Part shown: one piece after another, positions 3,403 to 34,494 of the stretch
Layout of the letters: every line of letters starts with the position of its first letter
Position numbering within the stretch: position 1 is the stretch's first letter
NCBI GenBank assembly: GCA_023374045.1
Contig: CM041779.1
Location: forward strand, 142,364,294 to 142,428,293
Reading direction: 5' to 3'
Length of the DNA: 64,000 nt
Source of the DNA: Limonium bicolor
Taxonomy: Eukaryota; Streptophyta; Magnoliopsida; Caryophyllales; Plumbaginaceae
Program-made: the position numbers and the translations under genes
Notes under the pieces: model-generated
Told to the model about the DNA's origin: nothing
What the model saw: only the letters and a program-made list of their open reading frames with translations
Database searches by the model: none

Positions 3403-4004
3403 CAACCGCCCCATTTCAAATTTATCTCACATTTCACCACGCTATGCAATATATATAATAACTATGGAATACAAATAGAATTTAGTATAAGGTTTATTTG
3501 TGACAATATATATATATAAGTATTTGTTTCTATTTAACATTTTGTTATTGTGCAAAATCATAATCAGAAATGCAAGTGTTATTACCGATTATGTTTGCTC
3601 TCCTCGTCTTAATCTGATTTTGTTCTACCTCAAAGCAACCTCCAAATCAACTTTCAAGATGTTAGTTAGTTTGCAAAAAAAAAAAATTGCTAGCACTTAG
3701 CTAGGTTACTATCGTGGGTTTTGATCAGGCAAGCCGGTGGCAGAGGTTGACGGGGCAGCAGTTAAGGCGACAACCGGTCTCATCGGATGTGCCCTGAAAA
3801 AGATAAGCTCTTTGTATAATATTGTAAAAATTACTGTGAGTTTGTAACCGCAGAAAAAATTAACTCCTTTAATCAAATTGCTAATTAGCATAATAAACTG
3901 TAGAAATTATCATAAGTGTTGCAAATTTCTAATTTCTAATTTCTAATTACTCTGATTGTAGAAGATAAGCATGTACATAATATTGCAAAATTACCGTGAG
4001 TTTT
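3403..4004. other. Older flanking DNA between two LTR elements
   Basis: AT-rich sequence, interrupted by the element starting at 4005 and resuming at 34490. It carries diverged short repeats containing AAGATAAG and TTACCGTGAG, which recur at 34650-35120. On the minus strand a GC-rich stretch at 3712-3796, preceded by an acceptor-like TTTTTCAG, could be a fossil exon (about 27 codons to a stop), but I recognise no family. The last five bases, GTTTT at 4000-4004, are the target duplication of the large chromovirus. Confidence 0.5.
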
Positions 4005-6124
4005 TGAAATACCCCAAACCTCAGTATGTTGTTTAAACACCTAAATATGGTATATTAAGACTAAAAAGAGTCTTAGAAGCATTAGTAAACAAATCTAAAC
4101 GATAGAAAACACAAAATGTGCTTTAAGGTCAATAAAGGCCAAAATGCGCTCTAAGCTTGGGATAAGCTTGGTTAAGACCTAATGAACTTACCAAGACCTT
4201 ATTTATATACTAATGACATAGATAAACCAATTACCAAAGAAAATCAAGTTGAAACAAGTTAAAACACAAAATGTGCTTAAGGAGTCTTAAAGCACATTTT
4301 CGAAAAATTGTCTTGTAAATGGGTTTTGAAGGCTAAATGTCCATCATTACTCTTTAATTAACATGTGTACTATATAGTATCACATTTGGAAGTCTATATC
4401 AATGGGAAATCAAAAATTTCACTTCTAAGTGCCTTGTTTTTTATGAATAGTGATTTAATAAACTAGTTTGTAACATATGTTTGTATAAGTAATTAAATGA
4501 CAAATAAAGACTATAATACCCTAAGTACTATTGGGGGCCGGTTTTCTTAAGTGTGGTGACTCACCACTCTCTTGTTAACATATTAAGTAAATAAAGAGAC
4601 TAACTAAAGTACTTTTACTTTATAAACTACAAATATCTTCTAAAAAGCAAGTTTACCTTCATTTTCCCTTCTTCCTTGCATTCACACGGGTTCCATGCTT
4701 CTTCAACCTCTCTTCTTCATTCTCTTCCACGGTAATACCACACCACCACCATTAAACTCCATCTTTGATCTCTTGTATTTCTAGCTCACTTAACCAAATC
4801 AAAAACAAAACCACCATTCTCTTCCTTCATCAAGCTCTTCAGCATTCTATCTTCTCAAAACTTCAAGAGCCCCATTTCGGTGCCATGGAGTTCCACCATT
4901 GAAGGAGCTTGAGCTTACATTTCTACATATTATTACTCTCCTTTGCTTCTAGGTAAGGAATCTCAAAGAAAAATCATGTTTCCTCCATGTTTTTACCTTG
5001 ACCGAAAATACCCATTAATGGTACTCTTTGTGTGACTTTGTTCTAGCTTCATTCCAACCTTTCAAGGACTAGGTGGAGTCCCTCTTGATAGATATTCAAA
5101 CTCTCTTCAAAGACCAAGGTAAAACAACTACATTAATGTTTTTGAAACAATGTAAAAACTAGGGTTTACAATGAGTTTAAGCTTGGAGCTTGTATACTCA
5201 TTTCAATGTTTGTATATTGTTTAGTAGTTGACAAGGAATCAAATACCTTACCAGTTTTATAAGGAAACAAGAAAGAAGTTGTGAGGAAAAAGAGGTAAAT
5301 ATACTAACCTAAGTGTTTAATGCTTTAGAGGAGAAATGAGCTTATAATGCTTGTTAAAACTACCTAAAGAGCAAATGGTAAATGACCTAGTGAGATGTTC
5401 TCAAGGAGATAGTAAAAGGACACATGTGTTGTTGTATGTATTTGCAGGTTAAAGGCAATATATATTGGGAAATTCAGGTTTAAGAGTTATGCACTTTAAG
5501 GGTCTAAGAGCCATGCATTTTAAGGGCCTAAGTGCCATGCAATTTAAATTATGCACTATATTGTAATGTAGTGTGATTTGCGTGAAACTTTGTGTGTGAG
5601 AGTGTTCTTGGTGAATTTAGGTGTTCTTGTGTGCTTGGGGAGAAAACAATGTGTTTGGCTTAGTAATGTCCTAGGAGAATCCATGTCAAAATTTAGGTAT
5701 AAAGCAAGAAGTTCTAAGTGTTTATATAAGGCTTGGTGAACTAGAAATGTTGGAAGTGCTTAAGTATTTTACAGGAGGAGAAATAATGTCTTAAGGTGTT
5801 CTAGGTAAACAAAAGGGACTTAGACATCAACTAGGGTTTAAGTGGTGAGAATGATGCTTGGGAGATGATGTTAAAATGAGGAGAAAGCATTTGGGATAGT
5901 AGTTATCATAGGTATGAAACATCACTTGGAAAACTAAGGAGGAAACAACATAAGTGTTAGGAATTTTGGGAAGAAATGAGTAAAGGTTTAAGGAATTAGA
6001 AAATAAGTTTTATGAGTGTTTAAGGATGTCTTAAGGTGTTTGAAGTGCCCAAATGAGGTTAGGGTGTACTAGGATATATGGGGTGAAGTTTGGAGTTAAA
6101 TGAGAAATGGAAAACAAGGGTCTG

Positions 6125-6455
6125 GGGCAGACCGAACTTGCGACCGAACTTGCAAGGTCGGTCGAGCCCAGTTTACCCTGCGAGAATTGGCTTCTGGAAT
6201 GGACCGACCTTAGGGACGGATTGCAAGGTCGGTGGGCTTGTATTTTGTGTAGGATTAAGTTTCTGGAATCGACCGAACATGGGACCGGACTTGGCAAGTT
6301 CGGTCGGGCTGAATTTTCAAAGGGAGAGAAACTCTCGGGAATGGACCGAACATGCGACCGAACTTACAAGGTCGGTCGGAGTAGAAAATTTTGACAGAAA
6401 TATGTTCTGGAATGGACCGACCTTGTGTAAGGTCGGTCGGTAAGGTCGGTCGGAC
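6125..6455. repeat. Array of imperfect palindromes built on ACCGACCTT/AAGGTCGGT
   Basis: About five degenerate units of roughly 60-70 bp. Each holds a GGAATGGACCGA start, a GACCGAACTTG or GACCGACCTTG arm and a CAAGGTCGGTCGG arm that can fold back. The other LTR of this element has the same array at 32803-33130. Open frames on both strands here are by-products of the repeat. Confidence 0.75.
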
Positions 6456-7346
6456 CAAAACTTGTAAAAAAAAAACAGAAAAGAATGTGACTTATGTAGT
6501 TAACCCTAGGGGGTATAATAGGTAACCTAGAGTACGTTAGACATTTAAACATGTCAAATAATCATGTTAAACTTAGTAAATTTGAAGTTAAGTAAGTTAA
6601 TTAACCGATATTCTTGAATCATGTATAGGAGTGACCTACGGTGGAAACAAATCGAGGCACGGACAAGGTATGGTTTTCTTGCAGTCTGTTGCCTACCGGT
6701 TTAAACCGGCTTGTGTGTTGTTTGTTTTCTGGGTGTTTATGACTTTGTAAGATTAAACCATGTAAAGAGTTTACAGTTGTTAAATATCATTATGTTGTTA
6801 AGTATGACTCTTCTTCCCTTGGTGTGTCTAACAAGACTTGACCTATTATTGTGAATTGTGTATTAAGTTCAATAATGAACTGCTAACAAGTGCTAACGGG
6901 GGAAGTGAGGAGTCCGGTCTGTTCCGGCCACGCGTGTGAGTATGGGAGTCGATGTCATAACCGGTCGATTCTCTTTGTATGTTATGGTTGTTTTCCAATT
7001 TGGTTTCCAACCTTCCCTTTAGCTTAACCAAGGCTATTTTATTGACTCACGTCGGGCCACAGGGGCATACTATGTGTTGTTTGGTGTGCTTGGATCACTA
7101 TATCCGAGGCACCTTGTGTTAAGTTATCCGTGCAATCTAAAGGACGGTAACGAGTTATGTAACGAGCTTAGCATGAGCATGGCAACATTCTCTAGGCTCT
7201 CTATGGGGACTAACTGTGTTGGTTCTCTTCCTTTAAGGAATTGTTCTTGTATGTTATGTGTGATGTTGTGTACAATACCCAAGTTGTGATATATGTATAT
7301 GTTGTGTGTTTTAAAATAAATGCCATGTCATCATGACAATTAGTTG

Positions 7347-7422
7347 CGCGCATCCCGGTAGCCGATGGGCTGCGCGTTAACCATACCAGCCAAGGGTTGC
7401 TGACCCCTCGGGGGCTCCATTT
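7347..7422 (+). promoter_or_regulatory. Paired stem-loops in LTR (copy 2)
   Basis: Stem-loop 1 pairs GCGCGCA with TGCGCG plus an inner CCC/GGG. Stem-loop 2 pairs CCCC with GGGG across TCG. A pyrimidine-rich run ending CTGCAG follows. It lies about 455 nt before the LTR end, equivalent to 2946-3014. The second LTR has it at about 34031-34106. Confidence 0.55.
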
Positions 7423-7808
7423 CTTTTTACTGCAGGATGAGGATCGAAGAAGCGGAATGGCTTTAGATTCTAGGATGCAGGTTTACTTTTGATTACTTTT
7501 GGATGTTGGCCCGGGATGCGCCTGTGCTCCCGTGGCGTTATATATTTGGTTGTGAACGGTTTACAGTGACAGTACACAGTGAAGGATGTAAGTAAACACT
7601 CGGTATTATGTTAATGTATATGTGGTTATTAGTTCTATGCTCGGGAGTCTGATCATCACCGGAGGTACACTTGATTATTCAGCCTTGTTAACCACGTGGG
7701 TGGTTGACGGCGTTGTAGCACCAATCGTTTAGATTACTACTGTTTAGTTGTTTAATTCCGCTGCGATTTCAAGTAATGTTATGTGCGTAGTATGGGTGTT
7801 ACAAAAAG

Positions 7809-7820
7809 TGGTATCAGAGC
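7809..7820 (+). other. Primer-binding site, initiator tRNA-Met
   Basis: TGGTATCAGAGC lies five bases after the 5' LTR end. This is the standard complement of the 3' end of plant initiator tRNA-Met and is where minus-strand DNA synthesis would start. Confidence 0.93.
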
Positions 7821-8445
7821 GAAGTATCGCTCTGATGACTAAATACCGAGCTTAGGGATATACCGAGTTAGGAAATCTAGCAACAGTTACTTAAGTGAAC
7901 AGTTAGGAAGGTTAACACTAACTAAGTGTGGTGGGAATACCTTATGGTCGGGAAAAGCGTTACAATCATTGGACCGATAAGTGTGCAAGCATATTGCTAA
8001 TGAATGTTCATGTGATTCATATGTCAGGTCGACCGAGAGGTAGGGCCGTGGCAATGGATACGGGTGACAGGGCAAGAATACTACGGTCTCAGGTTATGGA
8101 TGTCTTAGGAGTAATCAGCAGCCCGTAGACCCAGATGGTACCCCAATAGTAGCTGCGATGCAGCAGGGCAACAGCCCCGAGTTCAACACCACCACCGCCA
8201 CCGTCACGAGAGACCACGGGTCAAGCGTTGGTTGATTGAGGCCACACATCTTCATCATTGGAGAGACCGACCCTCGTAAACTGGAGGCATTACATCTCCG
8301 AGATGGAGACTGCCTTCGAGACCTTAGCAGTACCTGAGGAGGTCAAGGTTCGACTTGTGCATACTACTTGAAGGGTTCGGCACAGAGCTGGTGGAGCTAG
8401 TACGGGAGGGCAGAGTGGCTGACCCGACACTTTCATTGGAGGTAG

Positions 8446-9951
8446 TAGGGTGCAGTTCGGGTCAATCGTTCGGGTTCGGTTCGGTTCGGTTCGGGTCGGT
8501 TGATTCAAATCGTTTCAATTTGGTCATGGTTGGATCGGGTCGGTTGGTTGAATTCGGTTTGTTCGGGTTGAGTCGGTTTGTTGAAATTTCGGGTCGGTTT
8601 GGATCGGTTTGGTGATTTTCAGTTTGGATGACTTTCAGTTAGGGTGACTTCGGGTCGGGTAACTTACGGTTCGGGTTAGCATCTGGTTCATTCGGTTTTT
8701 TCGGGTTATGGGTCAAATTCGGGTCAATTATTCGGTTGCCATTACAGAAATCCGCAACTCAATCATCATGATATGCAAATTTAAACTTCAATCAATCTCA
8801 ACACGTATAAATATAAAATTGTATCATGTTATACTTTAGCAACAACTCTGAATTATCATAATTATTGATGAAGCTTTAGATTATTTAATAGTTTCATTAT
8901 TTCAGAGGAGTATAAATAAGGTATGTTTGTGGGATAATTATTAAAATTGGATCAAATGTAGTACCTTGTATTTTCAATCTATTAATAGTTAGAATGGAAT
9001 TAGTTAATAAGTTTTGATGATGACTTTTTTTACGGTAGTTAAAAACTGTTATGATGAAGAACTATTCAGAAGCATGAGAATTTTGCTACATAGGTAAAAC
9101 ATCAAGTATATTAAACATTTATGCTAAATTGCTAATGCGGGAGGAATTATTCACAATGGATAAAGCTTGAAAAATTCTAATTAATAAAAACACCTTCAAT
9201 ATATGAATAATTAATACAATAATGATATGAATTAGTTGATAAAATTTTGAGTCTAAATATACAATTTTTGGTTCTTACCAATCTATCATTGATGAGTAAC
9301 GCATTATATTAATTCATTATTAGTTGTGCAATTAATGAAAGCATGATAATTAATTACTTTAAAATTTATAGTGCCAAAATATTGTGGTATATTTAAAATA
9401 ATTTCTCGTGTATTAAGTTTATTAATACTTTTTTTAGGTACGCCACTTACTAAGTAATGATTAATTGTAAAAGTATTGTGGGGCATTGTTAGTGTTTGTA
9501 ATGATGTAATGAACAAATGCTAAATACTGATTGTGTATTTAAACTAGATATTGGGTATAAACATTCTGTTTATTCTCATTGTCTCCTATAATTAATGCAA
9601 TCGATTCTTTGGTTCACATCGGATATATTAGTTCGGGTCACACTGGTTCGGTTTAGGGTTGGTTCGGTTAGTTTTCGGTGGTTTCGGTTCGGGTCACTTC
9701 GGTTTTCGGGTCATCATCGGGTTTATGGGTGACTTCGGTTCGGTTGATTTGGTTCGGATGACTTAGGTTCGGATGACTGTGGATTGTGGTTTACTTTCGG
9801 TTTTACAATAATACGGTTTGTTTGGTCCGGGTCGGTTTATTTGGATTTCGGGTCATTTTTCAAGTTATAGTTTTCGGTGACATTCGGGGATTCGGATCGA
9901 GCATTGGTTCGGTTCGGTTTTTCGGGTTCGGGTTACTTTTGCCAGGTCTAG
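8446..9951. mobile_element. hAT-like non-autonomous DNA element inside gag
   Basis: About 1.5 kb of AT-rich DNA separates two halves of gag. Its ends are dense in TTCGGGT and GGTTCGGTTCGG motifs, inverted in sense (TAGGGTGCAG...TTCGGGTC at the left, ...GGGTTACTTTTGCCAGGTCTA at the right). The near-duplicate TGGAGGTAG (8437-8445) and TGGAGGGAG (9952-9960) flanks it. TAG-type termini with subterminal repeats and a duplication of about 8 bp suggest hAT, but the exact ends are uncertain. No coding sequence is seen. Confidence 0.6.
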
Positions 9952-10200
9952 TGGAGGGAGTACACGGCCTGCTGCGAGCCAAGTACTATCCGATACACGT
10001 GCAAGAGCCAAGCGCCTGGAGCTGGACAATCTGAGCAAGGGGATAAATGACGGTAGATGAGTACTACTCAGCCTTCATCGACTTATCCACCTGCTACCGG
10101 ATCTGGGTTACTCAGACTGGATTCTTGTGAACCGTTTCTACACGGACTGAGCTACCGCCTACGCTAATGGCATGGGGCCCAACGATATACTACTTTGCAG

Positions 10201-10294: not shown

Positions 10295-10549
10295 GATGCT
10301 ACCATGCCGCTGCAATTGTAGAGACACCGTCCGTCTGAGGGACGAGGAGAGTGCGCTTAAGCGCAAGGCCATGAACGAGGGCCAAGGCACGCAAGGGCAA
10401 TGGGGAGAAGAAGAAGAAGTCATACCCCCAGTCCCAGAAAGGACAGCAACAGGGTGGCAAGGGCCAGACCCAGACCACCACTGCTGAGGAGCCTCTACAG
10501 CTCACCTATGCGTATGCGGCCAAGCCCCTACGTTCTTACCCACCCAAGG

Positions 10550-10631
10550 GTAATTAACAAACTTCAATACTGAAATCTAGTGTGTGTTATTAATTTTTGA
10601 AGTATGTTCTGAGTGTGTGATGTGTTAGCAG
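10550..10631 (+). other. Putative intron 2 in gag (phase 1)
   Basis: It begins GTAATTAAC and ends TGTTAGCAG, 82 bp and strongly AT-rich. Excision joins G|CT in frame and fuses the Lys/Gln-rich segment to the zinc-knuckle segment. Confidence 0.65.
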
Positions 10632-10973
10632 CTAGCACGGGCTCTGGACCGGAGCGCCACTATTACTGCAAGTGGTGTAACGGAGACCATCCCGGCAAGG
10701 ACTGCAAGGGTAATGATGTGCAGTGCCGATACTGCAAGAAGAGGGGGCACCGCGACTATGAGTGCTGGCAGAACCCGAACAGTAGGAACTACAGGCCCAA
10801 GGGGCAATGGAAGGGTAAGGCCACTGCGACCACCGATGGCCCGAAGACGGCGAATCCGCCACCCCCAGATCAGAGGTACACAGATTCCCAGAAGGGGAAG
10901 GGGTCGGGGTCCGGTAAGGCCGCCCTGAATGTGGTGGACCGGTCTGAGGCGCCAGGGCCCTCTTCTAGACCAG

Positions 10974-11100
10974 GTACCGCCTAAACTATTGAGTGAAATA
11001 AGTGTTTGCATACCGCATTTCATGCATGTGTGTTAGTGAGTTTAAGTAAACAACCATGTGAGTAAATCATTAAAGTATAGTGTGAAAGTCACCTAATTAG
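10974..11100 (+). other. Putative intron 3a joining gag to the AlkB exon (phase 1)
   Basis: The donor is ACCAG|GTACCG and the acceptor CCTAATTAG|GC. Excision of 127 bp creates a Gly codon (G|GC) and continues straight into the AlkB frame, which is open from 11097. Confidence 0.6.
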
Positions 11101-11858
11101 GCAACTCTAAACTTAAAGGAACCTTCAATATATGTTATCCAATCCCACCCACACCAAACCCTGAAGAAATCACCATCAACATCACCGACTTTCCAATGGA
11201 GCAATGTCAGGTTATCCAGTCAGGTATGATACTCTTAAATGGATACCTAACGCCGGAAGCACAAATCCATATCATCAGACGATGCGACGAACTTGGAGCA
11301 AAACCAGGAGGTTTCTACACACCCGAATACCCGAACGGATCAAGAATGCAATTGAAGATGATGTGCATGGGTAAGGACTGGAACCCTTACACCAAGACAT
11401 ATCAAGAAGTGCGAGCTGAAGATGGAGCAACAGTACCAAGTATACCTGAGGAGTTCCTTGCGGTCGTTAACCACGCCGTGGGAATTGCTCAACAAGTTGA
11501 AACAGATTCAATTCCAAATGTGAAAGCAGATCTGTGCATTGTGAACTTCTACCAGAAAGGTGGACGGTTAGGTTTACACCAAGATAAGGACGAGTCACCC
11601 GAGTCTCTAAGTAAGGGAGTACCCGTGGTGTCTTGGTCCATTGGTGATACCGCAGTGTTTGTGTATGGCGAGCAGAAGCGTGCTGACCTCGCAAAGAAGC
11701 TAGTGTTGAAATCAGGAGACGTGTTAATCATGGGTGGGCAGTCAAGGATGCTATATCATGGCATCAGAAAGATCAAACTGAATACCGCACCGTCGGCAGT
11801 GATCAATGCCACACACATGAAACCCGGACGTTTGAATTTGACCTTCAGACAGTTTTAA
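11101..11858 (+). CDS. AlkB-family 2-oxoglutarate/Fe(II) dioxygenase (ALKBH1-like) captured by the chromovirus
   Basis: AlkB enzymes remove methyl groups from nucleic-acid bases using Fe(II), oxygen and 2-oxoglutarate. The ORF has a Met at 11196 giving 220 residues. The frame stays open back to 11097, and the acceptor at 11100 would add 32 residues containing an FNIC motif that fits the segment just upstream of the domain in plant ALKBH1-like proteins. Counting from Met 11196, N117-x-Y119 (2OG contact), the iron triad H128-x-D130 and H188, and the R212-x5-R218 pair are all present. The sequence ends RLNLTFRQF, typical of the family. It lies between the gag zinc knuckles and the protease. Unlike gag and pol, it has no frameshift or premature stop. 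The substrate (m6A RNA, tRNA or DNA) cannot be told from sequence. The capture is inferred to come from a host ALKBH1-like gene. Confidence 0.93.
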
Positions 11859-12040
11859 GCCTTGTATAATTATGTGATGTGTTGAACCAGTGTATGTTAA
11901 GGATGTTGTAAGTGTTAGTTATGGCGACAGTATAAGCCAACGAATGTTGTAAAAAGAGTGTGTTAATGAATAAAGTGGAGTTGTTTGAAGCATATAAACC
12001 GTGTTGTTACCCAATACTTATTAGTTTGCCAATGAATTAG
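11859..12040 (+). other. Non-coding spacer between AlkB stop and pol
   Basis: AT-rich, with stops in the pol frame up to 12024. It ends in the acceptor-like GAATTAG. It would be the 3' untranslated part of an AlkB message or the end of the intron in a pol message. Confidence 0.5.
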
Positions 12041-15000
12041 GCTGTGCACTCGGAACGAGAGGTATACTGAGTGTCTGCAATGAGGCAGAAGCCGGCAGGA
12101 GCGGCACAATCCTCACCGGTACCTCTCCAGTCAATGGCGTGGACGCTTCGATCTTGTTCGACTCCAGAGCCTCACATACATTTATTTCACTATCCTTTGC
12201 GAAGAGGCTGGGGTTAGACGGTGATGAGATGCCAGACTTCCTAGTCACTCTCCCGTCAAAAGAGCGGATCAGGTGTACCCGCTACCACCGAGATGTTGTT
12301 GTGAGAATCAGAGGTGAAGAGTTTCCGATCGACTTGATAGAGTTCGACGGACTTGGTTTTGATGTGATTGTCGGGATGAACTGGTTGGAGTGGTACAAGG
12401 GCAGAATCCTGTGTGCCGAGCATCGACTGCTTCTTCGGAGTCCGTCTGGGGTTACCATATCTTACCGCCAGAGGCCCAGAGAGCCTTCGACTCAGATCAT
12501 CACCGCCATGGCTATGTATCGTGAATTACGACGAGGGAGTGATGTATACCTCTGCTATGTCCAGGACATAGAGAGAGACCCAGAGTTTAGTCCTGATGTG
12601 CCGGTAGTGTCGGAGTTTCCTGATGTATTTCCTAAGGAACTGCCGGGCATGCCGCCAGCACGGGAAGTGGAGTTTGAGATTGAGTTGGTTCCGGGCACCG
12701 GACCAATTGCGAAGGCGCCATATCGTATGGCTCCAGCAGAGATGACCGAGCTCAAGGAGCAGCTGAGAGACCTACTCGACAAGGGGTTCATCCGCCCTAG
12801 CGTTTCACCATGGGGAGCGCCGGTCCTCTTCGTGAAGAAGAAGGACGGTAGCCTCCGCCTGTGTATTGACTATCGAGAGCTGAATGCCGTTACGGTGAAG
12901 AATCGTTACCCTTTACCACGCATTGACGATCTATTTGATCAGTTGAGGGGAGCATCAGTATTCTCCAAGATAGACCTACGATCCGGATACCACCAGATTG
13001 CCATCCGTGACAGTGATATCGAAAAGACAGCATTCAGAACTAGGTATGGGCATTATGAGTTCACAGTTATGCCGTTTGGCTTATCAAATGCACCAGCAAA
13101 GTTCATGGACTTAATGAACCGCTTGTTCCAAGATCAGTTGGACAAGTCAGTGGTAGTCTTCATCGACGATATACTTGTATACTCGAAATCGAGAGGTGAG
13201 CATGAAAGCCACCTGAGAAATGTGTTACAAACATTGAGGAAGAACCAGTTGTATGCTAAATTTTCGAAGTGTGAATTTTGGTTGAACCAAGTATCCTTTC
13301 TTGGTCATGTGATTTCTGAGGCCGGGATCGCTGTTGATCCGGCAAAGATTGATGCAGTGCGCACCTGGCCTAGGCCGAAGACAGTTACCGATATCAGGAG
13401 CTTCCTCGGTCTGGCAGGTTATTATAGGAGGTTTGTAAAGGACTTCTCCAGTGTCTCGAAGCCGATGACTTCCTTAATGAAAAAGGATACACCATTCGAG
13501 TGGACAGTCGACTGTGAGAGTTCTTTTAAGAGTCTCAAGGATGCTCTGACATCTGCACCGGTCCTGACATTACCAGACGGTCCAGATGGTTTTGAGGTCT
13601 ATTGCGACGCATCAGGCAGAGGTATGGGTTGTGTGTTGATGCAACACGGGAAGGTCGTAGCTTACGCCTCCCGACAGCTGAAGAAGCATGAAGAGAACTA
13701 CCCTACCCACGACTTAGAATTGGGGGCCATTGTCTTCGCACTGAAGATATGGCGACATCACTTGTATGGGGTAAGTGTGACGATTTATTCTGACCACAAG
13801 AGTTTAAAGTACTTGTTCACTCAGAAAGAGTTGAACATGAGACAAAGAAGGTGGGTTGAAGTTATGAATGACTACGACATTAATCTGCAATATAAGGAGG
13901 GTAAGGCAAATGTGGTAGCTGACGCACTGAGTCACCGAGCACACTCTCTCCATTCGCTAGTCTCTCATTCTAGCTTGGTTGAAGAGGTGCGGAGTGCTCA
14001 GATGACGGATCAGTACATGATGGAGATTAGACATAAGCTTATTGATGGCACATTCGAGGGTCAGAAGTATGACTTCAGACTCCACGATGATGACCTGATT
14101 AGGCTTAATGGCCGATTGTGTATACCGAGGAGTAGCGCTGAGTTGAAGGAGCGCATATTGAGTGAATCCCATTGTTCTACTACTTCGATTCACCCCGGAG
14201 CTTCAAAGATGTATAAAGGTATGAAAAGATATTTTTGGTGGACTGGAATGAAAAAGGATGTGAATGACTATGTGTTGAGGTGTCTCACTTGTCAGAAGGT
14301 CAAGTTTGAGCACCGACGGCCTGGTGGTATGGTACAGCCAATGCCAGTGCCTGAGTGGAAGTTCCATGACATATCCATAGACTTCGTAGTAGGGCTTCCG
14401 CCTACAAGGGGAGGTCTGAATATGATTTGGGTTGTTGTTGACCGACTGACCAAGGTGGCCCGATTCATTCCGATGAAGGACACTTGGAAAGTGGCAAAAT
14501 TGGCAGAACTCTTCGACAGAGAGATTGTAAGACACCATGGGGTACTGAAAACGATTGTATCTGACAGAGATACCAGATTCTTATCGAGATATTGGAAGTC
14601 TACACGAGAAGCATTGGGTACCGAACTGAAATTGAGTACAGCGTTTCACCCACAGACCGATGGTCAGAGTGAGCGCACCATCCAGACACTTGAGGATATG
14701 TTACGTGCATGTGCACTTGACTTTCAGACTAGCTGGATTGACAAGTTACATCTGATCGAGTTTAGCTACAACAACAGTTACCATGTTTTGATTAAGATGT
14801 CTCCCTTCCAGGCCTTGTACGGTAGACCATGCCGCACGCCATTATGCTGGGATGAGTCGAGTGAGACGGTCATTATAGGACCAGAGTATCTTGAGCAAGT
14901 TCAGGCAGAAGTTTGCCAGATCCGGGCTAACATGAAGGCAGCTCAGGATAGACAGAAGTCGTACGCAGATGTGCGCAGACGTGACCTGGAGTTCGCCGTG

Positions 15001-15419
15001 GGTGATCAGGTATTTTTGAGAGTATCCCCCATGAAGGGAGTGTTTCGTTTTGGCCAGAAAGGCAAGTTGAGCCCGAAATATGTGGGGCCTTATGTTGTGA
15101 CGGAGCGGATCGGCTCGGTAGCTTACAGACTTGATTTACCCCCGAGCTGGGCAAGGTACATGATGTATTTCATGTGTCCCAGTTGAAGAAATATATGTCT
15201 CATCCGTCTCATGTACTTCAGCCTGAAAGGCTAACCTTAGAGCCGACCATGCGATCAGTGGAGACTCCGGTACGGATTCTGGACACTAAGACTCGAGACA
15301 CTCGCCATAAGTCTGTGAGACTGGTGAAGGTTCTCTAGTCTAACCAGGACGTTGAGGAGGCCACTTGGGAGCTGGAAGATAAGATGAAGGCGAAGTACCC
15401 GTCATTGTTTACTTCTTAG
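12041..15419 (+). pseudogene. Chromovirus pol: protease, RT, RNase H, integrase, chromodomain
   Basis: This polyprotein copies and integrates the element. It is open from 12025, and residues below count from 12139. The protease site is D8-S9-R10 where the family has DSG. RT carries [19 protein letters not shown] and FIDD at 341-344. RNase H starts at YCDAS (488-492). Integrase has the zinc site H678, H685, C715, C718, the catalytic triad D748, D809, E845, and a GPY motif at 983-985. A missing base near 15154 ends the long frame at 15186. In the next frame the C-terminus continues to 15419 and shows the end of a chromodomain (EEATWELEDKMKAKYP), interrupted by TAG at 15336. The chromodomain in this family guides integration to marked chromatin. 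The DSR change, the frameshift and the stop make this copy inactive. There is no methionine before the protease, consistent with expression by fusion to gag. Confidence 0.9.
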
Positions 15420-15728: not shown

Positions 15729-16054
15729 TGAAATACCCCAAACCTCAGTATGTTGTTTAAACACCTAAATATGGTATATTAAGACTAAAAAGAGTCTTAG
15801 AAGCATTAGTAAACAAATCTAAACGATAGAAAACATAAAATGTGCTTTAAGGTCAATAAAGGCCAAAATGCGCTCTAAGCTTGGGATAAGCTTGGTTAAG
15901 ACCTAATGAACTTACCAAGACCTTATTTATATACTAATGAACATATTAAACCAACTACCAAAGAAAACCAAGCTTGAAAACAAGTTAAAACACAAAATGT
16001 GCTTTAAGGAGTCTTAAAGCACATTTTCGAAAAATTGTCTTGTAAATGGGTTTT
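15729..16054 (+). repeat. 3' LTR of the chromovirus, first part
   Basis: It matches 4005 to about 4329 and is cut at 16054 by the minus-strand LTR element. The last five bases GTTTT (16050-16054) are the duplicated target. Confidence 0.95.
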
Positions 16055-16427
16055 TGTAACACCCCCGAATCACAACCAACAATTAAATGACGTGCCTAAG
16101 TTAGCAGGAGAAGTCTACGCAGCGGTTCCTACTCTATTCGGGTGCTACAGACGCCAACCACCCACGTGGTTGACAGTCCTCATTACCAACTCCAAGTTAC
16201 GGTCTGTATGACTGGAAGTCCAACTTAACGAAATCCAAATACATTATAAAGTACAACTCAAGTACCGAGCTTCTACAGTTTAGTTAACAACTTAAACAAC
16301 ATAACTCATACATAAGAAAGCATACTACTTAAAGTCTTGCCATGTGGACTACCCCTATGATAGTCACCCTTGCCTACTCTCCGTTATTGTCTGGCACAAG
16401 ACCTGAAAAAAATTGGGTGTAAAGGAC

Positions 16428-16483
16428 TCAGCAAACTACGCTGAGTATGAACGTGTGAAGCCCGCATGTTACCGGGCCACACG
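16428..16483 (-). promoter_or_regulatory. Paired stem-loops in LTR (copy 3, minus strand)
   Basis: On the minus strand stem-loop 1 pairs CGTGTG with CACACG and GCCCG with CGGGC. Stem-loop 2 pairs CTCAGC with GCTGAG, and a T-run ending TTTTTCAG follows. It lies about 425 nt before the LTR end, matching the pairs at 2946-3014 and 7347-7422 in position but not in sequence. Confidence 0.55.
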
Positions 16484-17112
16484 ACTAATTGGTCGAATAT
16501 TATTAAGTCCATTTTACATGCTATGATAAAGCAGTAAAGCACACATCAGTACATCATGATATCATACACACTCATCGGTAGCATAGCAATATCAGCAAGC
16601 AACCAAGCACATCTTGCAAGTAGCACAGCAATATCAATAAGCAACCAAGCACAACTTGCCAGTAGCATAACAATGTCAACACGCAGTCCAGCATAATAAG
16701 CTGCTAGTGTAGCAACAACAGTCAGGTAATTATAGGACGTGTGCGTAGGTACATTATACCGTCAATCCTCGCTATGGGATCATTCAAGAGATTGCGTATT
16801 GTTATCTTGTTCTCATTACATATGTTTTCCTTTCTTCTCTTGCACCGAGTCCGGGGAATGTAGGTTAGATCCCGAGACTTTATAATATAGGTGCTATTCA
16901 TTCCTTGTTACTTAAATGATCACATTTGTGAATTTTCTTATTTGTTTGGTTTCGTTACACATGTTTTCCTCTATTCTCTGGCACCGAGTCAGGGGATATA
17001 GATTAGATCCCGAGGCTTTATTATGTAGGTGCTAATCATTCCTTGTTTCTCCAAGGGTTACTTGTGAATTCTTTATCACCGCACGTTGGAGGACGTCTCC
17101 TCCATAGCTAGT

Positions 17113-17340
17113 CCCCCATTCCCGACACCCAGGGTCAAGGAAGCGGAAGTCACCTCTAAACTCCAGGATAAGCTTCACCAATTTGTCACTCCCCCATTCC
17201 CGACACCCAGGGTCAAGGAAGCGGAAGTCACCTCTGGACTCCGGGATGTGCTTCACCAACTTGTCACTCCCCCATTCCCGACACCTAGGGTCAAGGAAGC
17301 GGTAGTCACCTCTGGACTCCGGGATGTGCTTTACCAAAAT
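17113..17340. repeat. 78-bp tandem repeat, three units
   Basis: Units start with CCCCCATTCCCGACACC and include GGTCAAGGAAGCGG at 78-bp spacing. The other LTR has the same array at about 24673-24897. It makes open frames on both strands, which I do not regard as genes. Confidence 0.85.
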
Positions 17341-18289
17341 ATATTCCATCATAGACGGTCGAAGGATCTGATGCAGATACCAACTCCCGATCATCCATAC
17401 CGCGCGGCCCGAGCTGTTGTCTTCCCGGGTTATTCTCATGTTTCACAGTTGATACTTTCCGTTTCATTATCATTATAATCTCGACACCATAGTGGGTGTC
17501 ATTAGCAGTCCTCTAAAGTTAGAGAGGATTCGTCTCTTTGTATAGTTCTTTTGTTTTGTCTACGTGGTTCGTCATGTCTCACCCAAGGAGACTTGCTCTT
17601 CATTATGATTAATGAATAGACACCATAGTGGGTGTCATGGTAGTCCTCAATGGATTAGAGAGGAGTTCCCCTTATTGAGTTTTCTTTGTTTTCATAGTTC
17701 GTAGTAGTTCGTCTCAAGTTCCATAAACGAGAAAGGGACTAAACTACTGTGTGCGCGCAAGTAAAATGCCACAAGGATATATATAACACGCATAAAAGCA
17801 AGCCACAAGAAGCAATCCAATTTTCATGCTTTTAGTCTTAGAGTCATTGTCACACAAAGCACACAACACACAAAGCAAACAAGCCATGTAACACGGCAAC
17901 ATACGAACCACACATGTCCATACCTGGATCAGAAGCAAGTAGTCTCACACACAGAGTCCTGGTCGAAGTTCGCTACGGCCCTAGCGTTAATTACAAACAA
18001 TGTGTCAGTTTATGCTTTCATGTGACAACCTTTGTGACACTCTCCGAATTTATTAATTTATTATCGGGTGTTATTTCCTAGATAAATCTTCGTTGAATGT
18101 TCAACCTTTATTAACCCTTAGGACTTCCCACGTGTTAGACTTTATGTTACTCCTAGGGCATTCACACCCTTATTTTACACGTTAACTAAGTCCTTTGTCC
18201 TAGTTACTGTTTTAGAGCATTTAAGCGTCAACCGTGTAACATGTTTCTATAAGATAGATTTAACTTGTCTAAAAGGTATTCCTTTCTTA

Positions 18290-20370
18290 GCTAAGTAGTT
18301 ATGTTTTGAGCTCATTATTTACACAATAACACTCCTCAATCACTTCTAGAACTCCCTTATATTGAAGCTTAAATATTTCCAAACTGAAATAAGGTTCTTG
18401 TATATAACCTTATTTTATCACACTTTTAATATGTCTAACGGTGTCTAAACTTCCCGAGTTGTTTTGTAAGTTTAGCTAGATGCATTAGAAAGGTTTTGGG
18501 TTCAATATAACTCTAACATCACCCTCATAACACCCATGTAACTCAATTATACAGAAATAAGAGTTACCGAAACTGAAAATACCAAATCTGTTTACAACAT
18601 CATTTAACTCCATATTTAGGTTGTCAGAGCTGGTGGTTAATTCTCCCCAAGTGAATCCCCCTCTACCCAAGTATATTAGTCATGTTTTAAACTCTTTATT
18701 GGACTAAGACAATCCCCATAACCACCCAAGAAATTTGTTTTACAGAAGTTACAAATTTCAGAAACTGACAACAACAACCTGGTTAGCACCTTATCTAAAC
18801 TCAACTTTGTTGTATCCAACTGATGTCTAACCCTCCCCAAAATGTCTCACCAACCTAGCCAGATGTATTAGCTATGATTTGGGTTCATTATTAAGCCAAC
18901 ACCACATTTTAACACCTCTGGATATTGACCAAACAGAGACACAAGTTTCAGAAAACTGAAACATCAAATCTGTGCATACTTCCATTCCCACTTCTCTTCT
19001 AATGCATTAAATTGATTTCTATTTTTTTTCAAAGTGTTTACACTCCTAGGTTGATGTATTAGAAAGGTTATAAGTTCATTTCCAGACCATTTCAACACAC
19101 TTATACCAATTGTATTATAGTTATACAGAAACAGAGAATGTAGAAAGCTGAAGACACCAATTCTATACAGCTCCTCCTTAAGCTTGCTTCTAGGTTACAA
19201 ATTAGCTTCCAAATCTTCCCAAAAATTTCACACAACTAGATAATTGCATTAGTAAGGATTTGAGCTTAAAAACAAATCAAAACAAGGCTGTTTACATCTC
19301 TGAAAGCTCATTTTACAGAAACCGAAATCTGCAGAAAACTGTAAATACCAGTTCTGTATAGTTCCTCTTTAAACTCCCATTTAGGTTACAAATCCGTTTC
19401 CAAACCTTCCCAAAGTTTTCACCCAACTAGATAGGTGTACTATGGAAGTTTTAAACTCAAAGATGACTCAAAACACTACTGTTATCACTTCTAAAAATTC
19501 GTTCTACAGAAACTGCTATACTGTAGGAAACTGAAAAACTAGTTTATGTATCTCTTCTTTAAGCTTTCTTACAGTTCCTTAATCTGTTTCTAATTCCACC
19601 CAAAACTTTAACCCAACTAGATAAGTGTTTAGGGAGGTTTTAAACTCAAAACCAACTCAAAATAACATTGTTAATACCTCTGAAAGCCCATTTTACAGAA
19701 AACAGAAAACTGAAAACCGAAATCATGGACTGATGCATGTTATTTTCTGTTGTTTGTTTCTGTTACCTAACCTGACTCCCAACCCCTCCCATTTGTTTTA
19801 CTCACTTAGTTAAATGTTAAATCGAGATTTAAAACTTAAGAACAACCCAAACAACACTGTTAATCCCCCACTGTCACACTCTTATACTGAATCAGAAAAC
19901 TGCAGAACTGAAAAAAAAATAAAAACTGATATAACCTCTCCGACTTTCCTTTCTGTTTGTTCACCAATTCGACTTTAAATTTTCCCCCAAGTGTTTATAA
20001 CTTACTTAAGTGTGTTAGGGAAGTTTTAGGTTCATTAGTAATTCAACACCACCCCTTGTAACCCTCTGTAACATGGTTATACAGAAAACATGGGTTTCTG
20101 GAAACAACTGAAAACTGTTGCATTTCCTTTCTATGATTTTTCTGTCTGTTCACAGTTGAATTGTTATTTTTATGTAACATGCTTACACACCTAGTTAAGT
20201 GGATTATCAAGGTTTTAAGCTCCTGAAACACTCAATACAACCCCCCTAATACTTTCTGTAACAAGGTCACACAGAAGCTTAAGTTTTCAGGAAAGGAAAA
20301 CTGAAACGTAAACCAGCTCCTAATTTTTACTCTTTTCTTGTTTGGGTGAGATCCCTCTGGTCAATTTTCC
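18290..20370. repeat. Degenerate tandem array, ~190-bp period, about 11 units
   Basis: A block approximating TAGATRNRTTAG...GTTTTRAGTTCA, then ACACC, then TTATACAGAAAC...GAAAACTGAAA recurs near 18290, 18476, 18667, 18857, 19049, 19238, 19429, 19617, 19807, 20014 and 20191. Units are strongly diverged from each other but the array is nearly identical in the other LTR (about 25838-27930). Confidence 0.75.
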
Positions 20371-22512
20371 AGTAACCTTCATGCATTTTCTCACCAGCTA
20401 TTGAATGTAAGTTTCCAAACTCTGTAACATCCCTTTTTAACTCCCTAAACCACTCGTCTATCTGGCTACACACTGCAGTAATTTCCTTAAGTCAGCACTG
20501 AATTTTTCCTTACAAGTCTTCGGTAGTTATCATGCTTGATCTTAACTTTGTGAGACCCTTGTGGTGAAACTCCTAACAGGTTAGCCCATAGTTATACCAT
20601 ACAACATGATTTACTAGTTCATGGGTACCCATTTACTCAGGATATTTACGGACATTACCAACTTGCTCATGGCAGAATATTTTTTTTTTTAGTTCATAAC
20701 AGAGGCGAAGGTTTAGCTCACAACCTTAGATGTCTCAGCTGGCTTTCTCTTGCCAGGGCCTTGAACCAATATAAGACTTCAGACCTTGGATTCTCGACAA
20801 CAGCTTGCTTCTGGCTGGGTTTTCCAGGAAGACCTGAACAGGTTGTACTCAAGGAGTTTTCGGACACCTCTGGTTGAATTCTGCACCAGAGAGGAGCTGT
20901 TCCTGCTGGCTACTATCGGTCACTAAGGATGGAGGGATTCCGGGGGAGATCATGCATGGACAAAAGAGAAGTGTAAGTGGGGAAGCAGTCCATTTTGGAC
21001 AGGTACTGATGGGGGAACTCAAATACCAAAAATCTGTTACAAGGAGCTTACCTTGGCTTGGTCTCAAGAAAAATTTAAAACTGGTTTCTTCCTCTTTTTT
21101 TTATTTTTACACCTATCGGTCATCTTCATAGTGTGGTTGCTTGGTGGATCCATGCATAGACATAAGAAGAGAGTGAGTGAGAGAAACAAAATCAATTCTC
21201 GGACAGGTAGGAGTGGAAGGAGAAGAGAACTTCCTAGACCACAATTTACCTCTAGTACTTGTCCTTCCCTTAGTGTGCTGTTTCTGAATTTTTTTCAGAG
21301 GTTCATTACTCCAGCATTATCGGACATGCATGAAGAGGAAACAAAAAAAATTGAGCTACAGTTGCAGAGGTAGGAAAATTCGAGAGTAGGAGTTCACACC
21401 AAAGAATCAGAATGGGGGAAAGGAGAACTTACTCCACGCAAGGCACCAGCAACAACTGAAGAGAGAGCTGAGAAATGATGCAGGCGTGCATTCAGGAATA
21501 GAGCAAAAGCAGACTGAATGCAGAAGGCTAATTAAATGATAATGGGTGGAAGTTTCAATGAGGAATGTGTGGAAGTTTGGAGAGCTTAAACTCCCATGTG
21601 AGTGGCGGTCTTCTTGTCTGATTTTCTAGCACTAGAATTCGACATTGGAGCATGGCTTGACTGATTTTCAACATCAGACAGCAATGTGGAGTATTGGAGT
21701 TTGAAGTGCAGTTTTTTTTTGTAACAAGGGATTCTGACTTTGCTGGTTCACTCAGTCATGAAGGAGTGGTGATTTCAGGATTAAACTAGGGAGGTAGTGC
21801 CTCTAAGTTCCAAAAGCGTTGGTGGGTATTTTATTATGAGTTAGACAACAGATTCTGGAGTAACATGAATCTGTTTTCATTACAGATTTTTGGACAGCAG
21901 CTGCTCAAGGACACATGAGTAGGCTCATGATGGGAGCAAGGGAATCAAGGCAGGATTTCATCTGGTTATTTAATGTGAGAGGTCACAAGTTACAAGGGAA
22001 TGAATGGCATTATGAGAGTAGAAGAAATCAGAAGCGTAGTGCTACTGCACAATGTCTTGTTTCAGCACTAGATGTCGGACACTTTGTGCACTAATGGCAG
22101 TGTGCTGGCTCCTTAAACAAGTAAGAGAATGTCAGAGCTGATTTAACATGTTATTCAAGGTTAATGCTCCCAAGTTACAAGGATCGCAAGTTCCAAATCT
22201 GAAGAGAGTGCTGCAGTATAATATATTGTTTTGGCTCGGGTGAGTCTACAACAAGGAGCGCTGCTCTAACTTACAAGGGAGTGGTGGCACTGAATTTTTA
22301 AGAGAATAATATCATGGGCATTTGAATAAAGAAACGTCACTGTCGCCTGAGGACTTGATCCCTCTAGTTTTCTATATATTTTTTTTTCTCCGATCTGGTT
22401 CAGTGAGGAAGAAGAAGAATTTGTTGTTGCCACAGGGATACGTTTGGTACTTCTTTTTTTTGTAGTTGGCTTACTAGACTCGACACTAGTATTAAGCGGT
22501 TGGTATAGGTTA

Positions 22513-22625
22513 CTGAAATCGAGCATAGCTCAACCGGTTAAGACGTCCACTAGGCATACAAGAGGTACGGGGTTCGAACCTCAATGGGAGTGTTTTTGCT
22601 CTTTTTCCTTTCTTTTTTTTTAAAT
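22513..22625 (+). repeat. tRNA-derived (SINE-like) segment with Pol III A and B boxes
   Basis: TAGCTCAACCGG (22526-22537) fits the A-box consensus and GGTTCGAACC (22571-22580) fits the B box, at tRNA-like spacing. T-runs downstream could stop Pol III. The surrounding bases do not fold into a normal tRNA cloverleaf. It points opposite to the host LTR, and the second LTR has a copy at about 30569-30680. It may be a short SINE or a tRNA relic. Confidence 0.55.
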
Positions 22626-22922
22626 TATACTTGCTTATTTATATATGTAACATCATATAATATACCACGTTATATTTATTTATTTATTTGTTACAAGGTT
22701 ACGCGACGTTATCATTTTTATTACAACGTTACGATATTGTAACGTTACGCCCATGTAGTTTTCGTATTAGTACATATTTAGGTGCGCGACTTTATTAGTA
22801 TGTAACGTCGTCACGCGTTCGGACATATGTATATACTAGATTTAATTTTTTTGTACGTTATTTTATGTCCGAATTATAAAACGCGTTATGATTTTATGCG
22901 TTTAATGTTCAGGGGTATTTCA

Positions 22923-23614
22923 ACTTACCCCCCTTAAAAGAGACTTCGTCCCGAAGTCTTACTTCCTTAACTTATCTTTTTATTATTTTTTTTCCACTCC
23001 TGGTAACCTTAGGGATCCAGTCCCGCATTCATTATCGCTTCCCAAAAGATTAAGTCCATAATTATAATGCTCGGTGCTTCTAAGCACCGTGCCACACCAG
23101 TGGCTTCACACAAGTTCTCATAGTAGACCAAGAAGCTAGCAATGTGTATAACATGCTAAAGTGCAACCCAAGACACACGACATTCATTCATCCATAGCGT
23201 ACATAACATTTTCACACACAATCCAAACACACAAACCTACCAACCAACCTCGAGTGATTGTAGGAATACATCATAATAAATCAACACACATACAAAACAA
23301 AACGCGCTTACCCCCCTTAAAAGAGGGGTACGCCCCCGTACCCTACACTAAACCAAAACATCGATGAGGAGATAGGGGTACATAGTTTTCCTTACCGGAT
23401 CGATTATATGCCATTGTGTAAACGCTAGATCGGGTTTTCCCGAGTGTGAGGAGGCTTTCTACCTCTCCAGCGTTTTCCTACGGATTGAAATGGACCCTAA
23501 CTAACGAGCCTCACAAACTAACCCGTAACCCCGTTTCTCAAATTTAGGTTTTCCTATACTCGGTACTCCTCTGTTCCAGTCATCAGAGCGCAACTACGCT
23601 TTGATACCACTTTC
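22923..23614 (-). other. Internal domain of the giant-LTR element (692 bp, non-coding)
   Basis: At the left edge is the complement of a polypurine tract (CCCCCCTTAAAAGAG). A second tract with a GGGGTACGCCCCC palindrome lies at about 23306-23335, as in the chromovirus 3' region. At the right edge the minus strand reads a primer site (GTGGTATCAAAGCG) followed by CGCTCTGATGACT, like the chromovirus leader. Gag, AlkB and pol are absent. The one plus-strand open frame (23161-23367) is antisense to the element and shows no family features. Confidence 0.85.
23590..23610 (-). other. Primer-binding site of the giant-LTR element
   Basis: The minus strand reads TGGTATCAAAGC just inside the LTR. This differs by one base from the usual initiator tRNA-Met complement TGGTATCAGAGC. 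Confidence 0.8.
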
Positions 23615-29600: not shown

Positions 29601-29928
29601 TGTTTCAGCACTAGATGTCGGACACTTTGTGCACTAATGGCAGTGTGCTGGCTCCTTAAACAAGTAAGAGAATGTCAGAGCTGATTTAACATGTTATTCA
29701 AGGTTAATGCTCCCAAGTTACAAGGATCGCAAGTTCCAAATCTGAAGAGAGTGCTGCAGTATAATATATTGTTTTGGCTCGGGTGAGTCTACAACAAGGA
29801 GCGCTGCTCTAACTTACAAGGGAGTGGTGGCACTGAATTTTTAAGAGAATAATATCATGGGCATTTGAATAAAGAAACGTCACTGTCGCCTGAGGACTTG
29901 ATCCCTCTAGTTTTCTATATATTTTTTT

Positions 29929-30431
29929 GAGTAAATTACTCAGAACCCCCCTGAGGATTTGGGATATTACAGTTAACCCCCTTGTGTTTATCATAATTAT
30001 TGGTAACCACCTCAAGGTTAAGGTATCTTTGACTACGAGCCCCCAAACTATAACTTTGTTATTAGAAAGTTAACTACGTGTTGATCTATCAACTTAATCA
30101 CATAAATAATGCCATGCTGGACAACAAAACTGCTTAATCAACATCAACTAACTATCTCTCATCCCACTTTTGATGCATTTTCGAGGCAAGGTTGACATTT
30201 TTAGGAAAATAAAAACACATATTAAGTAGTGTTTTTTGTCCAGTTTGACATTATTAATGTGATTAAGCTGATAGGTCAACACGTAGTTAACTTCCTAATA
30301 ACAAAGATATAGTTTGGGGGCTCGTAGTCAAAGATACCTTAACCTTGAGGTGGTTACCAGTAATTATGATAAACACAAGGGGGTTAACTGTAATATCCCA
30401 AATCCTCAAGGGGGTTCTGAGTAATTTACTC
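29929..30431. mobile_element. Foldback MITE, Mutator-like (503 bp, 9-bp target duplication)
   Basis: The two halves are long inverted repeats. GAGTAAATTACTCAGAACC at the left mirrors GGTTCTGAGTAATTTACTC at the right, and pairing extends roughly 200 bp inward. It is flanked by TATTTTTTT at 29920-29928 and 30432-30440. The other LTR copy (about 22371-22390) shows the empty site, which fixes the borders. A 9-bp duplication suggests Mutator mobilisation. It is non-coding. Confidence 0.88.
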
Positions 30432-30568
30432 TATTTTTTTTTCTCCGATCTGGTTCAGTGAGGAAGAAGAAGAATTTGTTGTTGCCACAGGGATACGTTT
30501 GGTACTTCTTTTTTTTTTGTAGTTGGCTTACTAGACTCGACACTAGTATTAAGCGGTTGGTATAGGTT

Positions 30569-30680
30569 ATTGAAATCGAGCATAGCTCAACCGGTTAAGA
30601 CATCCACTAGGCATACAAGAGGTATGGGGTTCGAACCTCAACGGGAGCGTTTCTGCTCTTTTTCCTTTCTTTTTTTTTAA
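30569..30680 (+). repeat. tRNA-derived (SINE-like) segment, second LTR copy
   Basis: A box TAGCTCAACCGG at 30583-30594 and B box GGTTCGAACC at 30628-30637. Paralogous to 22513-22625, with a few substitutions outside the boxes. Confidence 0.55.
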
Positions 30681-30984
30681 ATTATACTTGCTTATTTATA
30701 TATGTAACATCATATAATATACCACGTTATATTTAATTATTTATTTGTTACAAGGTTACGCGACGTTATCATTTTTATTACAACGTTACGATATTGTAAC
30801 GTTACGTCCATGTAGTTTTCGTATTAGTACATATTTAGGTGCGCGACTTTATTAGTATGTAACGTCGTCACGCGTTCGGACATATGTATATACTAGATTT
30901 AATTTTTTTGTACGTTATTTTATCTCCGAATTATAAAACGCGTTATGATTTTATGCGTTTAATGTTCAGGGGTATTTCAGTTTT

Positions 30985-34489: not shown

Positions 34490-34494
34490 GTTTT

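What the first reader, a model, noticed from the sequence alone, without database searches (positions are those of the whole stretch)
11101..11858. A chromovirus carries an intact ALKBH1-like nucleic-acid demethylase
Between the gag zinc knuckles and the protease is a complete AlkB-family ORF with the NxY motif, the HxD...H iron triad and the Rx5R 2-oxoglutarate site. Gag and pol nearby contain frameshifts and stops but this ORF does not. AlkB domains are known in some plant RNA viruses (Flexiviridae replicases), where they are thought to counter RNA methylation. An element that carries one could remove m6A or m1A from its own RNA or alter DNA/RNA marks used for silencing. I cannot tell whether this exact arrangement has been reported before.
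Basis: partly seen in the sequence, partly recalled or inferred. Interest (0 to 1): 0.93.

Follow-up and report, generated by a model that had tools for sequence, protein, structure and literature searches.

The report
Plant retrotransposon carrying spliced AlkB demethylase
A very abundant plant jumping gene carries a working-looking copy of a plant enzyme that removes methyl marks from DNA or RNA, placed so that splicing could fuse it to the element's own coat protein; only one comparable case, in orchids and built from different parts, was found in print.

The parts
4000..4004 (.). target site duplication GTTTT, left
   Evidence: flank printed; the same five bases follow the 3' LTR end at 34489
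4005..7803 (+). 5' LTR (3799 bp, TG...CA)
7809..7820 (+). primer binding site TGGTATCAGAGC (matches tRNA-iMet; primer identity recalled)
   Evidence: sequence
8021..10200 (+). gag exon 1 (capsid), interrupted in this copy by a foreign insert at about 8440-9945
   Evidence: start and insert by eye; donor CAG|GTAATG GT 28/28; exon 1 dN/dS 0.17 in 25 of 28 copies; Retrotrans_gag 2e-15 in copy L010
10201..10294 (+). intron 1 (GT...AG)
   Evidence: GT 28/28 and AG 28/28, AT 64%
10295..10549 (+). gag exon 2
   Evidence: dN/dS 0.25 in 28 copies
10550..10628 (+). intron 2 (GT...AG)
   Evidence: GT 27/27 and AG 27/27, one copy gapped, AT 71%
10629..10973 (+). gag exon 3 with zinc knuckles, ending CCA G| at the shared donor
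   Evidence: dN/dS 0.29; zf-CCHC_3 E 0.0029, 17.9 bits, under its cut-off of 27
10974..11100 (+). intron 3a, from the shared donor to the first possible AlkB acceptor (a second AG, in phase with it, ends at 11118)
   Evidence: donor GT 28/28, AG at 11099-11100 28/28 and AG at 11117-11118 28/28
11119..11858 (+). AlkB alternative last exon (or from 11101 with the first acceptor): short N-terminal stretch plus 220-aa ALKBH1-like dioxygenase and its stop
10974..12040 (+). intron 3 in the Gag-Pol reading (contains the AlkB exon)
   Evidence: pol acceptor AG 27/28; phase 1 on both sides in subfamilies A and B, worked out by hand from the alignments
12041..15183 (+). pol exon: protease, RT, RNase H, integrase, SH3; the window copy loses the frame before the chromodomain
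   Evidence: Pfam; dN/dS PR 0.14, RT 0.11, RH-INT 0.16; C-terminal defect by eye
15729..16054 (+). 3' LTR, first piece
16055..30979 (-). another LTR-type element nested in the 3' LTR (own duplication GTTTT at 16050-16054 and 30980-30984); not part of the finding; type and orientation inferred from its end letters
30980..34489 (+). 3' LTR, remainder; with the first piece 38 substitutions in about 3.8 kb against the 5' LTR
34490..34494 (.). target site duplication GTTTT, right

Best explanation
A chromovirus-type LTR retrotransposon family carries a host-derived ALKBH1-like Fe(II)/2-oxoglutarate dioxygenase as one of its own genes. Shown from sequence: the enzyme is complete, sits at one fixed place between gag and pol in the copies examined, is under purifying selection, and is flanked by conserved splice signals. 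Inferred: the pre-mRNA is spliced alternatively from the single donor after gag exon 3. Keeping the intron gives Gag, which stops soon after. Joining to the AlkB acceptor gives a Gag-AlkB fusion. Joining to the distal acceptor gives Gag-Pol. Gag would carry the enzyme into the particle with the genomic RNA, the tRNA primer and the newly made cDNA. Most likely it works there by oxidative removal of methyl groups from single-stranded RNA or cDNA. That would relieve m6A-dependent holding-back of the RNA, as reported for ONSEN and host ALKBH9B, and/or clear m1A and m3C type lesions that stop reverse transcriptase (recalled). Rough confidence by step: real ALKBH1-like enzyme gene of the element 0.97; selected for enzymatic function 0.9; expressed as a spliced Gag-AlkB fusion 0.7; acts on the element's own nucleic acids 0.5; which mark, open.
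Against: No transcript or protein was seen; all splicing is inferred from sequence. In subfamily A most copies do have an ATG at 11196, so separate translation is possible there. The 75 nt before the ATG are only weakly constrained within a subfamily (dN/dS 0.47 in A, 0.78 in B, few sites). Five of 33 copies were not scored or are out of phase at the conserved acceptor. In A two in-phase acceptors compete. Subfamily B rests on 5 copies, and one of them (L028) has unrelated sequence upstream of the donor. The AlkB-chosen copies were picked by Pfam score, which lowers their dN/dS. Nothing here tests substrate. The nearest named relatives are called DNA 6mA demethylases, not RNA demethylases.
Confidence: 0.58

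Rival explanations
1. The AlkB ORF is translated on its own from ATG 11196 (by leaky scanning, re-initiation or a short transcript), not as a Gag fusion, and acts as a free cytoplasmic RNA demethylase like the orchid ORF2.
For: ATG at 11196 in 26 of 28 subfamily A copies (27 AlkB-chosen plus the window) and in 12 of 12 pol-chosen copies; the orchid protein is a separate ORF.
Against: All 5 subfamily B copies lack it and have no Met until residue 51, inside the domain, yet their AlkB has dN/dS 0.13 among themselves. The stretch from the conserved AG to the ATG position is 75 nt in 25 of the 27 A copies where the motif was found (74 in L026 and L029) and in 5 of 5 B copies, and in the gag phase in 28 of 33.
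Confidence: 0.22
2. The enzyme works mainly on DNA: it removes 6mA or repairs alkylated bases in single-stranded cDNA or at R-loops, so protecting the element's DNA rather than its RNA.
For: Closest solved relative is OsALKBH1 and several of the closest named proteins are called DNA N(6)-methyladenine demethylase; rice ALKBH1 acts on unpaired DNA and R-loops.
Against: AlkB family members often take RNA as well; substrate residues were not tested; the plan does not tell RNA from cDNA.
Confidence: 0.3
3. It acts on the tRNA primer: demethylating m1A58 of initiator tRNA to change priming or the plus-strand stop.
For: The primer site matches tRNA-iMet (identity recalled); host ALKBH1 demethylates m1A in a tRNA during RSV infection (passage in PMC13191261).
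Against: In HIV-1, loss of m1A58 lets plus-strand synthesis run on and lowers infectivity (PMC13191261 passages), so removal should harm an element.
Confidence: 0.07
4. Passenger gene: a captured host fragment copied along without function.
For: Many copies are broken: 10 of the 17 places ranked next to the window by pol.
Against: dN/dS 0.12-0.24, catalytic residues intact in 45 of 45, retention through the A-B split and near relatives in unnamed contigs elsewhere.
Confidence: 0.02

Closest known systems
Phalaenopsis Gypsy_Pa_2799 family with paALKBH5-like ORF2 (PMC9289625)
   Same: Plant Ty3/gypsy element with an extra, conserved AlkB (PF13532) gene; abundant in its genome; catalytic residues kept
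   Different: Orchid: Tat/Ogre-like, 25.5 kb, ALKBH5-like domain at the C-terminus of a separate 565-aa ORF2, gag-pol in one ORF, m6A activity shown in vitro. Here: chromovirus-type, unit of about 10 kb, ALKBH1-like 220-aa domain between gag and pol, gag with introns, in phase with gag by splicing; activity untested
OsALKBH1 and plant ALKBH1C/ALKBH1D-like proteins
   Different: Most host proteins are longer; in the tree the element-type proteins form their own group beside the 19 sampled host proteins
Ogre and EVADE/BARE1 elements with regulated splicing of gag or gag-pol (passages in PMC6317226 and PMC12786077)
   Same: Introns in an LTR element used to set which proteins are made; unspliced RNA must serve as genome
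   Different: Here two further introns split gag itself, and one donor serves two alternative last exons, one of them AlkB (inferred from sequence)
AlkB domains of Alphaflexiviridae, Betaflexiviridae and Closteroviridae (named in PMC9289625 discussion)
   Same: A mobile or viral replicon carrying an AlkB dioxygenase
   Different: Those are RNA viruses with the domain in the replicase (recalled); here a retroelement, probably a Gag fusion

Membership tests
AlkB / ALKBH dioxygenases | PF13532 over its curated cut-off | tested here: met
   167.6 bits, cut-off 31.2
AlkB / ALKBH dioxygenases | HxD...H iron triad, RxxxxxR and NxY | tested here: met
   alignment; 45 of 45 copies
AlkB / ALKBH dioxygenases | Oxidative demethylation of nucleic acid | not testable with these tools
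   needs protein
Plant ALKBH1 (OsALKBH1-like) | Best sequence and structure match in that group | tested here: met
Plant ALKBH1 (OsALKBH1-like) | Nested among host ALKBH1 proteins in a tree | tested here: inconclusive
   Sister group, 87/82 against 97/95; descent within eudicots not rejected, p-AU 0.13
Ty3/gypsy LTR element | LTRs, primer site, gag, PR-RT-RH-INT order, short target duplication | tested here: met
Chromovirus | Chromodomain after integrase | tested here: inconclusive
   PF00385 at 2.9e-5 to 5.3e-4 in 4 of 4 other copies scanned, all under the curated cut-off; out of frame in the window copy (by eye)
Tekay clade | RT placement among reference clades | not tested
   no named reference set at hand; Tekay is from recalled motifs
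Orchid Gypsy_Pa_2799 AlkB lineage | ALKBH5-like domain in a separate long ORF2 | tested here: not met
   best matches are ALKBH1-like; 220-253 codons between gag and pol
LTR elements with regulated splicing (Ogre type) | Conserved in-phase intron signals in gag-pol | tested here: met
LTR elements with regulated splicing (Ogre type) | Spliced and unspliced transcripts seen | not testable with these tools
   no RNA data

The most novel reading that the evidence does not exclude
A retroelement lineage that makes three proteins from one donor site (Gag, Gag-AlkB, Gag-Pol) and so packs a nucleic-acid demethylase into its particle: an independent second capture of an eraser by plant Gypsy elements, the first of the ALKBH1 type found in the searches made here, now present at more than ten thousand sites in one genome.
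Probability: 0.5. Interest if true: 0.9.

Novelty: new variant of a known kind. Interest (0 to 1): 0.76.

Why it matters
If plant Gypsy elements captured AlkB erasers at least twice, from different AlkB classes and in different element lineages, then methyl marks on RNA or cDNA are probably a real pressure on retrotransposons. With 13,417 iron-site matches and a clear gene plan, this family makes that open question testable: is the enzyme in the particle, what does it demethylate, and does transposition need it? The alternative-exon plan would also be an unusual way for an element to add an enzyme to its capsid without disturbing Gag-Pol.

Full report

The element. It is complete: GTTTT duplications at 4000-4004 and 34490-34494, 5' LTR 4005-7803, and a 3' LTR in two pieces (15729-16054 and 30980-34489) because another LTR-type element, by chance also with a GTTTT duplication, sits inside it. 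The LTRs differ by 38 substitutions in about 3.8 kb (4 in the first piece, 34 in the second), about 1%, so the insertion is young (well under a million years with commonly used plant rates, which are recalled). They also differ by 52 gap openings (47 + 5), more than the substitutions; such an excess may partly be assembly error, which would then also inflate the frameshift counts below. Pol has protease, RT, RNase H, integrase and an SH3 domain. Four of four other copies scanned add a chromodomain that scores 2.9e-5 to 5.3e-4, under Pfam's cut-off. 'Chromovirus' is therefore likely; 'Tekay' rests on recall.

How common. PF13532 gave 150 matches over cut-off, all over positions 1-194, which is the cap of what was scored, among 38,324 loose candidates. 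A 21-mer over the iron site with up to 2 mismatches occurs 13,417 times (6,806 + 6,611), against 3 for the pattern read backwards. That 21-mer is found in 26 of 27 AlkB-chosen and 11 of 12 pol-chosen subfamily A copies and in 0 of 5 subfamily B copies (the '1 of 6' that one search prints for B is L048, an A copy that my identity cut put in the wrong row). So 13,417 estimates subfamily A and misses B. The matches are sites, not proven full elements.

A sample chosen by pol. To avoid judging AlkB on copies picked for good AlkB, 40 places were listed by similarity to pol 12040-12700. Of the 17 ranked next to the window, 12 were fetched, two were already in hand (L031, L026), and three are known only from their rows, because I had skipped places that stood in the AlkB list. 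All 17 have AlkB at the right distance before pol. The domain is uninterrupted in 7 of 17: L043 and L050 of the 12 fetched, L031 and L026 (L026 has indels before the ATG; all), and the three with rows. Ten have stops or frameshifts. The remaining 22 places on the list were not examined as a group. The window's undamaged ORF is thus ordinary for a young copy.

Selection. NG86 counts for the domain from the ATG: dN/dS 0.24 among the 12 fetched pol-chosen copies plus the window (78 pairs), 0.26 without the window and 0.23 with L031 and L026 added; 0.15 among 28 AlkB-chosen copies including the window (378 pairs; biased low by the choice); 0.13 within subfamily B (5 copies) and 0.12 between A and B, where pS is 0.66 and pN 0.17. 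In the 28 subfamily A copies pol gives 0.11-0.16; an intron read in two frames gives 0.96 and 0.80; AlkB read in the wrong frames gives about 1.6. AlkB is constrained about as strongly as pol.

Gag is split by introns. In alignments of A and B copies gag falls into three exons with GT...AG introns. Exons 1, 2 and 3 have dN/dS 0.17 (25 of 28 copies usable), 0.25 and 0.29 in the predicted frames; wrong frames, tested for exons 1 and 2, give 1.3-2.0. The introns are 64-71% AT against 39-47% in the gag exon stretches, 47-53% in pol and 54-59% in the AlkB exon. At seven splice dinucleotides there is 1 change in 194 copy-by-site comparisons, against a mean of 25.2 for seven random intron dinucleotides (P 0.0016); shared descent makes this P approximate. 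In another, unnamed source a 159-aa gag piece, P0241, ends ...TTLQVLS, three residues past the same exon-1 end.

AlkB as an alternative last exon. Gag exon 3 ends CCA G|GT. Reading on without splicing gives PGTA-stop in 27 of 28 A copies (L039 has a longer tail) and stops after 6 to 16 residues in the 5 B copies. The AlkB exon begins after an AG that is 28/28 in A (11117-11118) and has a matching ACGTAG|GAAGC in 5 of 5 B copies. Joining there is in phase with AlkB in 28 of 33 copies: 23 of 28 A and 5 of 5 B. Of the rest, three A copies (L010, L027, L038) have a changed motif string and were not scored, and two (L026, L029) are out of phase. A second AG at 11099-11100 is also 28/28 and in phase in 24 of 28 A copies. 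The distal acceptor (12039-12040, 27/28) is in the same phase with pol in A and B, read by hand. Subfamily B has AAC or AAA in place of ATG 11196 and no Met before residue 51, which lies inside the domain, yet its domain is constrained. So B cannot make a whole AlkB from an ATG of its own. The stretch from the conserved AG to the ATG position is 75 nt in 25 of the 27 A copies where the motif was found (74 in L026 and L029) and in 5 of 5 B copies; the 12 pol-chosen copies were not measured. It keeps a motif (TFNICYP / SYKICFP) seen also in P0002 (PFDICYP) and in many host proteins (FDIC), but its constraint within subfamilies is weak: 0.47 in A and 0.78 in B. One B copy, L028, has unrelated sequence before the donor, and three of five B copies have stops in gag exon 3.

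Relatives elsewhere. Among 5.77 billion proteins six unnamed ones stand out at 59-71% identity (P0001-P0004, ranks 1-4; P0048 and P0101 are partial and rank lower by E-value); named plant proteins, many ALKBH1- or abh1-like, lie at about 45-51% (the best 120 of 2,819 were listed). AlkB P0001 and gag exon P0241 have the same longest-contig length (26,621); AlkB P0002 and pol-only P0122 (74% to the window's pol) share 26,561. That the equal lengths mean one contig is an inference; the contigs could not be opened. In a tree of 37 proteins 8 from this genome and the 6 unnamed ones form one group (87/82) beside 19 host proteins (97/95), bacteria outside. Descent from within eudicots is not rejected (p-AU 0.13), so when and from what the gene was captured is open.

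How it probably works. Alternative splicing from one donor would give Gag, Gag-AlkB and Gag-Pol. The fusion would bring the enzyme to the genomic RNA, primer and cDNA in the particle. Support for a benefit is by analogy: Arabidopsis ALKBH9B frees ONSEN RNA by removing m6A (passage in the review PMC12786077), and the orchid enzyme removes m6A in vitro (abstract of PMC9289625). The nearest solved relative, rice ALKBH1, is described as a demethylase of 6mA in unpaired DNA and R-loops (passages of PMC10469495), so cDNA is an equally fair target. Clearing m1A or m3C, which stop reverse transcriptase (recalled), would help copying. Demethylating the primer tRNA looks harmful by the HIV-1 example (PMC13191261 passages).

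Known or new. Only one comparable case was found in print: PMC9289625 (abstract, introduction, parts of results, discussion and passages read), where 121 angiosperm genomes were screened and the domain was found in LTR element consensuses only in two Phalaenopsis species. It differs in element lineage, AlkB class and gene plan. Searches whose listings showed nothing else of this kind: (0 papers; 20 of 25 listed; 2; 7; 20; 15 of 73 listed; 12 of 15 listed), on open-licence PubMed Central papers only. PMC7730604 (passages) reports alternative splicing in sunflower LTR elements but no Tekay element among its expressed set. Hence a new variant of a known kind.

Noticed in passing
own genome C1:497439466-497470353: Four AlkB matches with equal scores at spacings of 10,121, 10,043 and 10,097 bases: it looks like a tandem array of the element.
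   Followed up: no
16055-30979: A 14.9-kb LTR-type element nested in the 3' LTR, with its own GTTTT duplication and end letters that read as the same termini in the other orientation.
   Followed up: partly
5' LTR 4005-7803 against 3' LTR pieces: More gap openings (52) than substitutions (38) between the two LTRs; perhaps indel errors in the assembly.
   Followed up: no
about 8440-9945: An AT-rich insert in gag exon 1 with TTCGGGTTCGG-rich ends (by eye); possibly a DNA transposon.
   Followed up: no
6105-6453 and 32803-33129: Short repeats with GACCGAACTTGC / GGTCGGTCG units inside both LTRs.
   Followed up: no
35994-39842: A Copia-type polyprotein with an open frame of 1282 aa (RVT_2, integrase, gag); pieces of a second one at 48746-50311 and 51945-52490.
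   Followed up: partly
gag, 10201-10294 and 10550-10628: Two conserved introns split gag itself in a chromovirus-type element, besides the AlkB/pol intron; unusual, as plant LTR elements generally lack introns (PMC12786077 passage).
   Followed up: yes
P0007, P0008, P0009, P0012 and other host proteins: Host ALKBH1-like proteins share a (P)FDIC stretch upstream of the domain, also traceable in the element's exon before the ATG.
   Followed up: partly
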